DNA from: an uncultured Cytophagaceae bacterium
GTDB lineage: Bacteria > Bacteroidota > Bacteroidia > Cytophagales > Spirosomataceae
Length of the DNA: 52,636 nucleotides
NCBI GenBank assembly: GCA_903907745.1
Contig: CAIVPF010000019.1
Span: 1 to 52,636, forward strand
Direction of reading: 5' to 3'
Positions 29,085 to 46,742 of this stretch are shown one piece after another (positions within the stretch are counted from its first letter, which is position 1; each line of letters begins with the position of its first letter). Both the position numbers and the translations under genes were made by a program. The notes beneath the pieces are model-generated. The model was not told the origin of the DNA and did not search any database. It saw nothing but the letters and a program-made list of their open reading frames with translations.

Positions 29085-30452
29085 TTAAACCATTGGAAAA
29101 CGAATGGTAAATTCGGTGATGCCGTTTAATTCTGATTGTACAAATATTTGTCCGTTGTGTAAAAGGACAATTCGTTCGACGAGGGATAATCCGATACCAT
29201 AGCCTTTGGAGGAAGCTGTATTTTCTGCGCGGAAAAATGGCTGGAAAATGTATGGAATATCCGCTTCAGGAATGCCTTTGCCTTCATTTTTTATTTTGAT
29301 GACAATGAATTTATCTTCGGTTTGAATACTGGCTTTGGCGAGTTTATTGCTCGAAAATTTACAAGCATTTTCCAATAAGTTTTTTATGGCCGTTAGCACC
29401 AGTTTTTCATCACCTTTGATGTGAAGTAATTCCTCATCGTCGGGCATAAATTGGGTGTCTATCTGTACCTTATAAGCGCTATTTAACTTTAATGTCAAGC
29501 TCCTTGATTCCCATAGAATTTCATCCACGCGGATGGTTTGAAAACTAGCTTGGTAATCGGAAATACTGATTTTATTGAGCTCTAACAAGGATTCTGTAAT
29601 GGCGGCCAAATCTTGGGTATCCTCTAAAACGGATGCGATGGTCTTTTTGTATTCATCCGTTTTGCGTTCATTGAGTAAGCTGACTTCCAATTGGGATGAT
29701 ATTTTCGTCAAAGGGTTCTTTAATTCATGGGAGACATTCGCAATAAACGTTTTTTGTAGTTTAAAGGCATTTTCAATGCGTTCTAATAGCCGATTTATCG
29801 TTGCCACCATCTTCCCTATTTCATCCTCTGAGGTGGTGTTTTCTAGGCGTTGTTCGAGGCGTTTGGGTGATAATAAGTCGACCTGTTTAATGACTTCCGA
29901 AATAGGATTCACGGCTCTTCCCGCAAAAAACCAACCCGAAATCACCACAATAAAGACAAATAGTAAAAATAAGGCGATTAATATATTTTTTAGATCCTTG
30001 GCATTTTCAGCTGAATATTGGTCCACGGCTCCGGCAAAAACAACGATTCGGCCTTCTGGAGTCACAAAAACGGTACCTACTACTTCTAAATCGTCTACCC
30101 CAAAGCGTACTTCCTTGCTTTTCAAAACTTCCTTTACTCGATTGACATCAATATGAAAATTGATCGTATCATTCGACCGATAAATACGCTCATAACAAGT
30201 GTCATAGGCCATGATATTTTCCCGGTATAATATATCTCGATTTGCTCGGTCGATGATGCGTAGTAATTTACTATCGACTTGGTTGACGTTGACTAATAAT
30301 TCTGCGGCTGTATTTGCCTTTTGGCGCAATCGGCTGTAAAATTTATCTTCGTAATTTTGTTGGGTAAATACATAAATAATAAGATATGAAACGAAGAGAA
30401 TCGCCGAAACCAGGTAGGTAAATTGGTAGGTTAATCTCGATCGGATCTGCAT
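29085..30452 (-). CDS. Two-component sensor histidine kinase
   Basis: A 455-residue inner-membrane kinase. Two membrane helices (about residues 10-30 and 155-178) flank a periplasmic sensor region of about 125 residues. HAMP follows (about 175-230), then HisKA with phospho-acceptor His242 (NVSHELKNPLTK), then HATPase with NLLENACKFS (N box), NEGKGIP and GYGIGLSLV (G boxes). It phosphorylates the response regulator encoded 1 bp upstream. The signal sensed is unknown. Confidence 0.95.
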   Translation of the reverse strand: MQIRSRLTYQFTYLVSAILFVSYLIIYVFTQQNYEDKFYSRLRQKANTAAELLVNVNQVDSKLLRIIDRANRDILYRENIMAYDTCYERIYRSNDTINFHIDVNRVKEVLKSKEVRFGVDDLEVVGTVFVTPEGRIVVFAGAVDQYSAENAKDLKNILIALFLLFVFIVVISGWFFAGRAVNPISEVIKQVDLLSPKRLEQRLENTTSEDEIGKMVATINRLLERIENAFKLQKTFIANVSHELKNPLTKISSQLEVSLLNERKTDEYKKTIASVLEDTQDLAAITESLLELNKISISDYQASFQTIRVDEILWESRSLTLKLNSAYKVQIDTQFMPDDEELLHIKGDEKLVLTAIKNLLENACKFSSNKLAKASIQTEDKFIVIKIKNEGKGIPEADIPYIFQPFFRAENTASSKGYGIGLSLVERIVLLHNGQIFVQSELNGITEFTIRFPMV

Positions 30453-30453
30453 C

Positions 30454-31137
30454 TTATTGTTCTTGTCTTAAAATATAACCCATACCAAATTGCGTGTGGA
30501 TTAATTTACTTGAAAAGCCTTTATCGACCTTTTTGCGTAAATAATTCACATACACTTCGATGAGATTCGAACTATTTTCATCTTCCACTTCCCAAATATT
30601 TTCGGCGATTTCAGCCTTTGAAAGCACTTTTTCTTGGTTTCTGAGGAAGTATTCGAGCAATTGAAATTCTTTGGACGTCAGGTTAATCATTTGGCCAGAC
30701 CGACTCACCAAATGACTAGTTAAATCCATTTCTAAATCCCCAAATCGAAGCGTTTGGGCTTCTAAAATCGTTTGATTTGAGCGTTTGATCAACGCCTTTA
30801 CGCGGGCTAAAAATTCCTTAAAATCGAAGGGTTTAGCTAAATAATCATCCGCTCCAGCTTCGAACCCGATTAATTTATCATCGGTCGTGCTTAAGGCCGT
30901 TAACATGAGAATGGGCGTTTGAATACCCAAAGAACGTAATTCTCGGCATAATTCGATGCCATTGATGCCAGGAATGATGATGTCTGATATGATTAATTGA
31001 TAGGTATTCCGCGTGGCTAATTGCCTGGCCAAAATACCATCATAGGCAACCTCCACCGTGTAATGATTTTCTTCCAAACCCTGTTTCAGAGATTGAACGG
31101 TTTTAGGCTCATCTTCGATCAATAAAATTTTCATCAT
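30454..31137 (-). CDS. OmpR-family response regulator
   Basis: A 227-residue regulator: receiver domain with Asp9/Glu10 acidic pocket, phospho-acceptor Asp52 (SDIIIPG), Thr80 and Lys102 (AKPF), and a winged-helix DNA-binding domain at residues about 130-225 (LTSKEFQLLEYFL, VYVNYLRKKVDKG). It pairs with the kinase downstream. Its start (ATG 31137 or 31134) overlaps the end of the MazG-like gene by 4 bp, so the three genes are co-transcribed. Confidence 0.95.
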   Translation of the reverse strand: MMKILLIEDEPKTVQSLKQGLEENHYTVEVAYDGILARQLATRNTYQLIISDIIIPGINGIELCRELRSLGIQTPILMLTALSTTDDKLIGFEAGADDYLAKPFDFKEFLARVKALIKRSNQTILEAQTLRFGDLEMDLTSHLVSRSGQMINLTSKEFQLLEYFLRNQEKVLSKAEIAENIWEVEDENSSNLIEVYVNYLRKKVDKGFSSKLIHTQFGMGYILRQEQ

Positions 31138-31601
31138 CTTAATAGACTTACTAAATCCGCCGGCGAATAATTAATTGATTTTAATACTTTATTATCTGAT
31201 TTCCGGTACACTTTCCAAATGCCATGTTCTTCCTTGATTTCAGCTTCAGTACCGTCTTTGTCCTGGTAAAATTGAACAGTTTGTTCGGCTTCTAGAAGAC
31301 TTTGGCATGCTTTTGACATGTTCGAGCGTTGTACCTCATTAAATAAATCAACAAATTTTTCTCCTAAGCCAAACTCCAAAACGGCCCCAGAAAGTACATA
31401 TTGTAAATCACAGAGTGCATCCGCTACTTCGATTAAATCTCCTGCAGCAATGGCTTCCCGTAATTCGTCTAATTCTTCCGCTAATAGGCTGACACGTAAA
31501 GAAGAACGTTCAGGAGATGGAATCGTCGGCACGTCCAAGATCGGCGCACCAAAGGTCTGATGAAATAAGGCCACCTGGTTTAAGGAATCAATTTTTTGCA
31601 T
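31134..31601 (-). CDS. MazG-like nucleoside triphosphate pyrophosphohydrolase
   Basis: A 155-residue all-alpha NTP pyrophosphatase. The metal motif EExxE...ExxD is present as Glu42, Glu43, Glu46, Glu58 and Asp61, followed by Asp65. A short C-terminal domain (GIWKVYRKSDNKVLKS) is typical of this subfamily. Such enzymes hydrolyse (d)NTPs to monophosphates and may cleanse the nucleotide pool. It is the first gene before the two-component system and the DnaA-box cluster lies directly upstream. Confidence 0.85.
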   Translation of the reverse strand: MQKIDSLNQVALFHQTFGAPILDVPTIPSPERSSLRVSLLAEELDELREAIAAGDLIEVADALCDLQYVLSGAVLEFGLGEKFVDLFNEVQRSNMSKACQSLLEAEQTVQFYQDKDGTEAEIKEEHGIWKVYRKSDNKVLKSINYSPADLVSLLR

Positions 31602-31619
31602 AAAATAAGGTATATATCT

Positions 31620-31650
31620 TAAAATTAAGCAATTATCACGGCTATGTCAA
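31620..31650 (-). promoter_or_regulatory. Promoter of the MazG-like/two-component operon
   Basis: On the minus strand TTG (31650-31648, in TTGACA) is followed after 20 bp by TAATTTTA (31627-31620), one base off TAnnTTTG. The leader would be about 15 nt. The DnaA-box cluster begins about 20 bp upstream of the -33 element. Confidence 0.5.
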
Positions 31651-31670
31651 GGGAATTTCAGCCTCCGTAC

Positions 31671-31803
31671 TCATCCACACGGCTTGTATGCCTAGGAATA
31701 ATCATTCATTTGTAAACATATCCACTACTTATCCACATTAAATTGTGGATAAGTGTAGAGTCAAAATAACAAATGTGCACAATTGTGGATAAAATGGGGA
31801 TAA
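31671..31803. promoter_or_regulatory. DnaA-box cluster, candidate replication origin or DnaA-regulated region
   Basis: Three exact 9-mer DnaA boxes lie here: TTATCCACA at 31729-31737 and its complement TGTGGATAA at 31744-31752 and 31784-31792. One-mismatch copies are at 31671-31679 (TCATCCACA) and 31795-31803 (TGGGGATAA), and a two-mismatch copy at 31718-31726. The first two exact boxes form an inverted repeat with 11 bp arms and a 6 bp spacer (31727-31754). An AT-rich stretch, 31602-31640, lies to the left. Chance occurrence is very unlikely; whether it is oriC, a DnaA sink or a DnaA-controlled promoter is open. Confidence 0.7.
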
Positions 31804-31814
31804 GTATCTAATCC

Positions 31815-32309
31815 CTAGTTCAAGGGTTTACTTTCAGAAAAAGAACCATCGGAATAAAAAATGATGACCCGTTCGATGGACTTTGTCAAATGTGGCGCAT
31901 GTCCAGGAGTGATGCTTGGATTTTCAGGAGAAGAATTCGTGTTTTTAAGCTCCTCTCGGTTCCGCCTGAGATTCGAGCGTACGATCGTAGGCTCAGGTAA
32001 AATATTTTTAGGCGATTCTGAAGGGCTTGGAATTGGCGCATCAAAAAGGGATTGCAAAGGTAAAGTTTCAGATTGTTGGGATTTCGATTCAGTAAGCAAT
32101 ACCAAACCCCGATCTTCAAAAAGTAATTCCTCTGCGCTAATTTCAGGAAAAGCAGATAAGATCTTTTGAACGACGTCTAAACTCGGTTTATTGCGCCCAG
32201 ATAGGATATGCGAAATACTACTCCTCGGAATTCCCAATATATCCGCAAATTGAGAAGAACTCAATTGTTTACGCTTAATAAGTAGCTCAATTTTCTCAGT
32301 TAAATTCAT
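31815..32309 (-). CDS. XRE-family helix-turn-helix regulator
   Basis: A 164-residue protein. Residues 1-62 are a Cro/CI-type HTH (SSQFADILGIPRSSISHILS, then GRNKPSLDVVQKILSAFP). Residues about 75-140 are a low-complexity linker rich in Ser, Pro and Asn. The C-terminal ERVIIFYSDGSFSES is a short motif also seen at the end of similar small Bacteroidota HTH proteins, from memory. The target is unknown, but a perfect palindrome covers its own promoter, suggesting self-repression. Confidence 0.82.
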   Translation of the reverse strand: MNLTEKIELLIKRKQLSSSQFADILGIPRSSISHILSGRNKPSLDVVQKILSAFPEISAEELLFEDRGLVLLTESKSQQSETLPLQSLFDAPIPSPSESPKNILPEPTIVRSNLRRNREELKNTNSSPENPSITPGHAPHLTKSIERVIIFYSDGSFSESKPLN

Positions 32310-46305: not shown

Positions 46306-46742
46306 TATTCCGCTACGATATCGATACTAATGATTTTATCGCCTTGACGAATCTGGTCTATGATATCTTGCCCCTCAATCACTTTTCCGAAACAAGTATG
46401 TTTGCGATCTAAATGTGAAGTGTTATTGCGTGAATGGCAAATAAAGAATTGAGAACCCCCGGTATTCGGACCCCGATGTGCCATGGAAAGTACACCACGG
46501 TCATGGTATTGATTGTTTCCAGTTAATTCACAAGGAATGCTATAGCCTGGACCACCACCACCCGTTCCGTCCGGATCTCCACCCTGTACGACGAAATCTG
46601 GAATCACGCGGTGAAACGTAAGTCCATTGTAAAATCCTTTTTCAGAGAGATCGATGAAGTTTTTCACGTGAATCGGTGCATCTTCCGAATAAAATTCAAT
46701 TTTCATTAACCCTTTATCGGTTAACATGTTTGCATATGCCAT
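46305..46742 (-). CDS. Cyclophilin-type peptidyl-prolyl isomerase
   Basis: A 145-residue cytoplasmic cyclophilin. [19 protein letters not shown] carries the catalytic Arg and Gln, GSQFFI follows, and [12 protein letters not shown] ends the active site. No signal peptide is present. It speeds cis-trans isomerisation at prolines. It is divergent from the TPR lipoprotein gene at 46835. Confidence 0.94.

What the first reader, a model, noticed from the sequence alone, without database searches (positions are those of the whole stretch)
31602..31814. Dense DnaA-box cluster away from dnaA: replication origin or DnaA-controlled promoter
Three exact TTATCCACA boxes and three near matches fall in 133 bp, two of them as an inverted repeat with 11 bp arms, beside an AT-rich stretch. 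This is origin-like. Against an origin, gyrA to the left and rpoD, pnp and rpsO to the right all point toward the cluster, whereas essential genes usually point away from an origin. The alternative is DnaA control of the MazG-like/two-component operon, whose promoter lies 20 bp away, or a DnaA-titrating site.
Basis: partly seen in the sequence, partly recalled or inferred. Interest (0 to 1): 0.75.

Follow-up and report, generated by a model that had tools for sequence, protein, structure and literature searches.

The report
DnaA-box cluster at dUTPase-like promoter
A tight cluster of binding sites for the protein that starts DNA replication sits not at the replication origin but just upstream of a gene that probably cleans uracil nucleotides out of the DNA building blocks, and it is kept across a genus of freshwater bacteria, suggesting that replication start and nucleotide clean-up are wired together.

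Summary
The cluster is real: 3 exact TTATCCACA boxes, 2 with one mismatch and 2 with two lie in a 213-bp gap; none of 5000 shuffles gave two exact boxes. It is not oriC. The genome (genus Aquirufa) has a denser cluster on another contig; its counterpart in relatives lies near mnmG and parS sites and, in G019, at a local GC-skew switch.

The window cluster is a second conserved site. In 22 of 22 Aquirufa loci with upstream sequence, a 'double DnaA box' (2-bp spacing) followed by TTGTG[AC]ACA or TCGTGCACA precedes a mazG-like gene. A convergent pair TTATCCACA-N6-TGTGGATAA occurs once in each of 15 of 25 Aquirufa genomes, always there. The protein resembles DR2231, a MazG-like enzyme solved with dUTP analogues. 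Classical dUTPase was found in none of the 25 genomes of the family in a 192-genome sample; all 25 have mazG.

Best explanation: DnaA regulates a dUTP-cleansing operon, as E. coli DnaA does nrdA. Titration is the main rival. DnaA binding is inferred, not shown.

The parts
31784..31803 (-). Double DnaA box, 2-bp spacing: TTATCCCCA-tt-TTATCCACA (read on the - strand, toward mazG)
   Evidence: a double box with 2-bp spacing in 22 of 22 Aquirufa loci with upstream sequence and in the sister-genus genome G191; 0 in 760 kb of sampled G007 and 0 elsewhere in the window. The oriC loci of G007, G019 and G013 also hold such double boxes; those of G000 and G010 do not.
31774..31782 (-). TTGTGCACA, directly after the double box with 1-bp spacing; either a third, weaker DnaA site (7/9 match) or an unknown regulator's palindrome
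   Evidence: TTGTG[AC]ACA or TCGTGCACA in the same position in all 22 Aquirufa loci; TTGTGCACA in G191.
31744..31752 (-). DnaA box, exact; right half of the convergent pair TTATCCACA-N6-TGTGGATAA
   Evidence: the pair occurs once per genome in 15 of 25 Aquirufa genomes, always upstream of mazG; nowhere else in the 39 genomes searched; backward control 0.
31729..31737 (+). DnaA box, exact; left half of the convergent pair
31718..31726 (+). ATATCCACT (2 mismatches), 2 bp before the exact box 31729-31737: a second double box, on the + strand
   Evidence: this second double box was listed for the window only.
31671..31679 (+). TCATCCACA (1 mismatch), an outlying weak box; not shared by the five clade relatives aligned with it
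31602..31640 (-). Candidate core promoter of mazG: block ATTGCTTAATTTTAA (31619-31633) just before the start codon (inferred)
   Evidence: TAATTTTA within 60 nt of the start codon in 22 of 22 Aquirufa loci (alignments). The Bacteroidota promoter pattern is recalled, not from a call.
31134..31601 (-). MazG-like (DR2231-type) NTP pyrophosphohydrolase, 155 aa; probable dUTPase
   Evidence: Pfam PRA-PH; DR2231 by sequence, E 7.3e-10 over profile positions 10-99 of 154; AlphaFold2 pLDDT 94.8, best fold matches all DR2231.
30454..31137 (-). OmpR-type response regulator, start overlapping the mazG stop
   Evidence: follows mazG in 13 of 13 Aquirufa loci of the named collection, including the one cut upstream.
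29085..30452 (-). Sensor histidine kinase, same operon by position
   Evidence: 13 of 13 Aquirufa loci of the named collection.
31815..32309 (-). HTH_3 (XRE/RstR-like) DNA-binding protein, 164 aa, immediately upstream
   Evidence: upstream of mazG in 12 of 12 Aquirufa loci of the named collection not cut upstream.

Best explanation
The cluster is a DnaA-binding regulatory element upstream of the mazG-response regulator-histidine kinase operon, not a replication origin. DnaA most likely binds the tandem double box cooperatively as a dimer, extends onto the adjacent TTGTGCACA, and forms a second complex on the convergent pair. By analogy with E. coli nrdA and purH, this would tie expression of the MazG-like enzyme to the DnaA cycle. 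The enzyme is most likely the organism's dUTP pyrophosphatase, so uracil nucleotides would be removed and dUMP supplied for dTTP synthesis in step with replication. Shown here: box anatomy, conservation, location of the origin elsewhere by synteny, the family and predicted fold of the protein, and no match to classical dUTPase. Inferred: DnaA binding, the direction of regulation, and dUTPase activity.
For: Not origin: a denser cluster on C34 (7 exact boxes in 213 bp) is orthologous to G007 1,241,620-1,242,044 (10 exact) and G019 C2 376,495-376,907 (9 exact), near mnmG and parS palindromes 4-6 kb away. 4-fold-site skew turns from -0.21 to +0.06 between neighbouring stretches there in G019; no turn at the mazG cluster in G020. 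Conservation: mazG in 23 of 25 Aquirufa genomes; at least 3 exact boxes upstream in 21 of 22 loci with upstream sequence, the other having 2; double box in 22 of 22; convergent pair in 15 of 25 genomes, only there. The double box is the arrangement bound by E. coli DnaA, including upstream of nucleotide-synthesis genes (PMC11317965, section 5 read). Enzyme: DR2231-like. Of 192 Cytophagales genomes: mazG only 48, dut only 120, both 20, neither 4; own family 25 of 25 mazG, 0 of 25 dut. The genome's own DnaA holds GGRDHSTVIHA, recalled as the box-reading motif.
Against: No binding or expression data. In the window the conserved boxes lie about 90-160 bp upstream of the presumed core promoter; over 22 loci the nearest exact box lies 75 to 170 bp before the start codon, so spacing is not fixed. 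Of 20 other genomes of the family examined, 19 lack exact boxes in the 1 kb upstream of mazG although none of the family has dut, so DnaA control is not a general need of mazG. 20 genomes have both mazG and dut, so mazG may do more than dUTP removal. In A. rosea the origin locus itself holds only 2 exact boxes (8 with one mismatch) against 3 upstream of mazG, so box density alone does not mark the origin. G007's whole-chromosome skew is irregular and marks neither cluster clearly.
Confidence: 0.6

Rival explanations
1. DnaA-titrating or DnaA-state-controlling site (works like E. coli datA/DARS or the DnaA-box clusters of Gram-positives); its place upstream of mazG is incidental to transcription.
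For: It is the only extra-origin place with three or more exact boxes within 500 bp in the box lists of G000, G007, G019 and G010. Box arrangement varies between clades while boxes stay. E. coli datA and DARS also carry double boxes (PMC11317965), and DnaA-box clusters near oriC in B. subtilis and Streptomyces can repress untimely initiation (PMC4585315, passages).
Against: The cluster stays upstream of mazG in every Aquirufa locus that could be examined and in the sister genus G191, and four Arcicella-like loci with other flanks also have boxes upstream of mazG, which a free-standing sink would not need. It has 2-4 exact boxes, fewer than the origin locus in 5 of the 6 Aquirufa genomes compared, more than in A. 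rosea. In G007 it lies 0.89 Mb from the origin.
Confidence: 0.25
2. Second or ancestral replication origin.
For: Inverted and tandem boxes, AT-rich surroundings. Sister genera carry a parS-like element and, in some, boxes upstream of mazG. In A. rosea the mazG site has more exact boxes than the origin locus.
Against: Origin landmarks are at another locus in Aquirufa, and Arcicella keeps the same mnmG-parS order at that other locus. No skew turn at the mazG cluster in G020. gyrA, rpoD and pnp point toward the cluster.
Confidence: 0.03
3. The conserved sites belong mainly to another regulator (the XRE-like protein or the response regulator) reading TTGTGNACAA, with DnaA boxes secondary.
For: TTGTG[AC]ACA/TCGTGCACA next to the double box is present in all 22 loci; an XRE-like gene adjoins it in 12 of 12 uncut named-collection loci.
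Against: TTATCCACA is the canonical DnaA box and is clustered at this genus's origin locus too. Four Arcicella-like loci have boxes without an adjacent same-strand XRE gene.
Confidence: 0.1

Closest known systems
E. coli nrdA and purH promoters (DnaA-bound nucleotide-synthesis genes)
   Same: Double DnaA box upstream of a nucleotide-metabolism gene (PMC11317965, section 5 read; PMC8203912, passages).
   Different: Target is a MazG-like probable dUTPase with a two-component pair; an extra convergent pair and an adjacent TTGTGCACA; the phylum is Bacteroidota; binding not shown.
E. coli datA / DARS1 / DARS2
   Same: Small non-origin groups of DnaA boxes in a non-coding stretch (PMC4585315, passages).
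   Different: Sits upstream of one gene across the genus; IHF/Fis sites not tested; effect on DnaA unknown.
DR2231 MazG-like nucleoside triphosphate pyrophosphohydrolase of Deinococcus radiodurans
   Same: Sequence (E 7.3e-10) and predicted fold (TM-score about 0.5-0.75).
   Different: About 28% identity in most fold matches; sequence match ends at position 99 of 154 in the main stretch; activity not tested.
Bacterial oriC
   Same: Clustered canonical boxes, AT-rich.
   Different: The parS and mnmG landmarks and the skew switch lie at another locus of this genus.

Membership tests
Bacterial chromosome origin (oriC) | Densest DnaA-box cluster of the replicon | tested here: not met
   C34 has 7 exact boxes in 213 bp, this cluster 3; G007 10 against 3 and G019 9 against 3. 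Exception: in A. rosea the origin locus has 2 exact and 8 one-mismatch boxes against 3 exact at mazG.
Bacterial chromosome origin (oriC) | GC-skew switch at the site | tested here: not met
   No sign change around the mazG cluster in G020; local change at the other cluster in G019. G007 irregular. The window's own genome was not tested (fragmented).
Bacterial chromosome origin (oriC) | parS / mnmG neighbourhood | tested here: not met
   Palindromic parS and mnmG lie at the other locus. The window holds one non-palindromic TTTCACGTGAA at 46662, 15 kb away.
DnaA-regulated promoter, double-box type | Two tandem DnaA boxes 2-3 bp apart upstream of the gene | tested here: met
   22 of 22 Aquirufa loci; definition from PMC11317965.
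DnaA-regulated promoter, double-box type | DnaA binds in vivo and changes transcription | not testable with these tools
   Needs ChIP and reporter or RNA assays.
datA/DARS-type DnaA control site | Changes DnaA-ATP/ADP state; IHF or Fis dependence | not testable with these tools
   No biochemical data; IHF/Fis sites not searched.
DR2231-type dUTP pyrophosphatase | MazG-like fold with acidic metal-binding residues | tested here: met
   Fold matches; E42, E43, E46, D61, D65 invariant and E58 at least 90% in 36 sequences. That these form the metal-binding motif is recalled.
DR2231-type dUTP pyrophosphatase | dUTP hydrolysis | not testable with these tools
   Indirect only: complementary distribution with dut.

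The most novel reading that the evidence does not exclude
In Aquirufa and its closest sister genus, the replication initiator DnaA directly controls the cell's main dUTP-cleansing enzyme through a composite double-box element (with a convergent pair in most clades), with a two-component system in the same operon. This would be a replication-coupled uracil-avoidance circuit in a family that lacks classical dUTPase.
Probability: 0.4. Interest if true: 0.68.

Novelty: new member of a known kind. Interest (0 to 1): 0.52.

Why it matters
DnaA's activity as a transcription factor has been characterised in only a few species, as a 2021 review says (PMC8203912, passages); the string 'bacteroid' does not occur in its text, nor the word 'Cytophaga'. 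A conserved, single-copy element upstream of one gene gives a clear target for testing DnaA regulation in Bacteroidota. It would also link initiation with removal of dUTP in organisms without classical dUTPase, a puzzle raised by 'Life without dUTPase' (PMC5122711, passages), which reported 26 of 96 Bacteroidetes species lacking dUTPase genes and already suggested that MazG-like enzymes might help. My searches found no report of DnaA control of a dUTPase: DnaA + dUTPase + DnaA box gave 2 papers (listing only); three or more of DnaA, Bacteroidota, DnaA regulon, DnaA-binding gave 2, both on E. coli.

Tried and rejected
Origin reading: rejected on box density in the window's genome, parS/mnmG synteny in relatives and skew. 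Results the other way: A. rosea's origin locus has fewer exact boxes than its mazG site, and skew in G007 and at the Arcicella origin locus was uninformative.

Ancestral-origin idea: sister genera (Arcicella, Flectobacillus and others) carry a conserved TGTTYCACGTGRATA element upstream of mazG (8 of 80 loci, plus one variant), and some share a CTGA..CACTTA block resembling one in the origin loci of G007 and G019. Dropped because Arcicella keeps mnmG and parS-like palindromes at the locus matching Aquirufa's origin.

TTGTGNACAATT as a genome-wide regulon motif: 27 matches in 8 genomes against 20 for the backward control; 4 of the 8 genomes have it at mazG, the others there have a variant.

Dimeric dUTPase (PF08761) as an alternative enzyme: weak matches in 12 of 192 genomes (best E 3.5e-6), all but one partial and that one with stops inside; two are Aquirufa (G018, G024), none in the window's genome. 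I did not search bifunctional dCTP deaminase-dUTPase or ung.

Sigma-70 promoter and terminator scan: uninformative.

Caveats on counts: conservation is biased because box columns were chosen for holding exact boxes in at least half the rows. The Fisher test treats related genomes as independent, and its lists were copied by hand (their lengths, 140 and 68, match the tallies); three of the 'both' genomes (G033, G047, G059) have only partial mazG matches. That the family has 25 genomes in the sample rests on the listed rows; the lists of genomes without a match are cut. Notebook slips: entry 2 gives '13/13' (correct 12 of 12), entry 1 '23/24' (correct 23 of 25 with the own genome).

Full report
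Observation. There are three exact TTATCCACA boxes (31729+, 31744-, 31784-), two with one mismatch (31671+, 31795-) and two with two mismatches (31718+, 31774-). Two exact boxes form an inverted repeat with 11-bp arms. In 5000 dinucleotide shuffles of the 213-bp gap, 27 had one exact box and none had more; at the background rate about 2.6e-5 such triples are expected in the genome. On the - strand, reading toward mazG, the layout is TTATCCCCA-tt-TTATCCACA-a-TTGTGCACA, then the convergent pair TTATCCACA-N6-TGTGGATAA.

Surroundings. The gap separates an HTH_3/XRE-like gene from a mazG-like gene, followed by a response regulator and a histidine kinase, all on the - strand. A genome of the same genus, G005, holds its mazG on a contig of the same length and position as Aquirufa rosea CAR-16, and A. 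nivalisilvae and A. beregesia match G020 and G024 likewise, so the genus is Aquirufa. In the Aquirufa loci of the named collection XRE is upstream in 12 of 12 uncut ones, CvfB before it in 12 of 12, dapD in 11 of 12 (the last at a contig end), and RR and HK downstream in 13 of 13.

Not the origin. The window's genome has 58 exact boxes; the densest set is on contig C34, 7 exact in 2626-2838. Neighbouring genes make this orthologous to clusters in G007 (1,241,620-1,242,044; 10 exact) and G019 (C2 376,495-376,907; 9 exact). In G007 and G019 parS palindromes lie 4-6 kb away with mnmG in between. In the window's genome contig C54 carries parS and mnmG and ends inside a gene that apparently continues on C34. 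The origin locus of G013 has 9 exact boxes between the two flanking genes and that of G010 has 6; that of A. rosea has only 2 exact but 8 with one mismatch, so density alone is not decisive. In G019, 4-fold-site skew is negative in 9 of 14 stretches up to 371 kb, positive in 3 of the next 4, then negative again; the turn at the origin locus is from -0.21 to +0.06. Around the mazG cluster of G020 it is negative in all 7 stretches from 600 to 860 kb, positive at 560 kb. G007's overall skew is irregular and was no help. Arcicella keeps parS-like palindromes and mnmG in the same order at the corresponding locus, with no clear skew turn.

A second conserved site. mazG was found in 23 of 25 Aquirufa genomes; the two without are 73% and 80% complete. 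One locus is cut 18 bp upstream of the gene. Of the other 22, 21 have at least three exact boxes upstream and one has two. All 22 have a double box with 2-bp spacing followed by TTGTG[AC]ACA or TCGTGCACA; the double-box search found none in 760 kb of sampled G007 DNA without the mazG and origin stretches, and none in the rest of the window. The convergent pair occurs once in each of 15 of 25 Aquirufa genomes, always just upstream of mazG, and nowhere else in 39 genomes (positions compared). One whole clade (six loci) lacks the pair but keeps the double box. Within four clade alignments box columns are 96-100% invariant against 24-48% elsewhere, a comparison biased by how the columns were chosen.

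Distribution. Of 80 loci from the named collection, which overlap the genomes above, 12 uncut Aquirufa loci all have at least three exact boxes; one more is cut; of the other 67, 4 (Arcicella aurantiaca, an Arcicella MAG and two Cytophagales MAGs) have any within 600 bp and 63 have none. Of 20 other genomes of the family (20 of the 21 in the sample), only G191, of another genus, has exact boxes; it also has the double box and TTGTGCACA. So the element is a trait of Aquirufa and near kin, perhaps with a looser form in the Arcicella group.

The enzyme. By profile the protein matches DR2231 of Deinococcus (E 7.3e-10). The AlphaFold2 model (pLDDT 94.8) matches DR2231 structures first, including dUMP and dUMPNPP complexes; all 37 matches with E below 0.001 are DR2231. 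Classical dUTPase (PF00692) was not found in 16 of 16 Aquirufa genomes in one search, while 7 of 8 genomes of other families had it, nor in the 25 genomes of the family in a larger sample, all 25 having mazG. Over 192 Cytophagales genomes (sampled at 90% completeness or more): mazG only 48, dut only 120, both 20, neither 4. Genomes are not independent, but outside the own family 23 of 27 dut-lacking genomes still have mazG, in five families. The dimeric dUTPase model gave weak hits in 12 of 192, two of them Aquirufa, none in the window's genome.

Mechanism. In E. coli, ChIP-seq shows DnaA binding mainly to double boxes 2-3 bp apart, found at 15 of 16 bound regions, including those upstream of nrdA, nrdD, purH and polA and at datA and DARS (PMC11317965, section 5 read). 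The Aquirufa element has this arrangement, and the genome's DnaA has an intact GGRDHSTVIHA motif (role recalled). I therefore infer that DnaA binds here and regulates the mazG operon, coupling dUTP removal and dUMP supply to initiation. The direction of regulation is unknown. Titration of DnaA is the main rival and could coexist. The absence of exact boxes upstream of mazG in 19 of 20 other family genomes shows that such control is optional.

Novelty. DnaA control of nucleotide genes is known; this would be a new member of that kind with a new target and a composite layout in Bacteroidota. My literature searches found no report of it in the listings; I read passages of PMC5122711, PMC8203912, PMC4585315 and PMC11317965, section 5 of the last, and the abstract and outline of PMC12371093.

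Noticed in passing
L084, L088, L089, L090, L093, L095, L096, L099 (variant in L097), 120-235 bp upstream of mazG: A conserved parS-like element TGTTYCACGTGRATA lies upstream of mazG in Arcicella, Flectobacillus and related genomes, in several followed by a CTGA..CACTTA block and a DnaA box. Function unknown; not seen upstream of mazG in the Aquirufa loci of the same 80.
   Followed up: partly
G007 (L033-L072): The single-contig relative G007 has an irregular GC skew in 40 sampled stretches: negative from about 2.44 Mb through 0.21 Mb, mostly positive or weak elsewhere, not centred on the origin locus. Possible rearrangement or assembly fault.
   Followed up: no
L001 (G000 C52, dnaA at about 40.1-41.5 kb): The nearest exact DnaA box on the dnaA contig lies about 15 kb from dnaA, unlike autoregulated dnaA promoters described in E. 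coli. Near matches were not scanned.
   Followed up: no
192 Cytophagales genomes: Classical dUTPase and the MazG-like protein are strongly complementary (48 mazG only, 120 dut only, 20 both, 4 neither), suggesting repeated replacement of one by the other.
   Followed up: partly
G039 = A. rosea, L181:877-2772: The origin locus of A. rosea holds only 2 exact but 8 one-mismatch DnaA boxes, against 6-9 exact in four relatives measured the same way and 7 in the window's genome.
   Followed up: no
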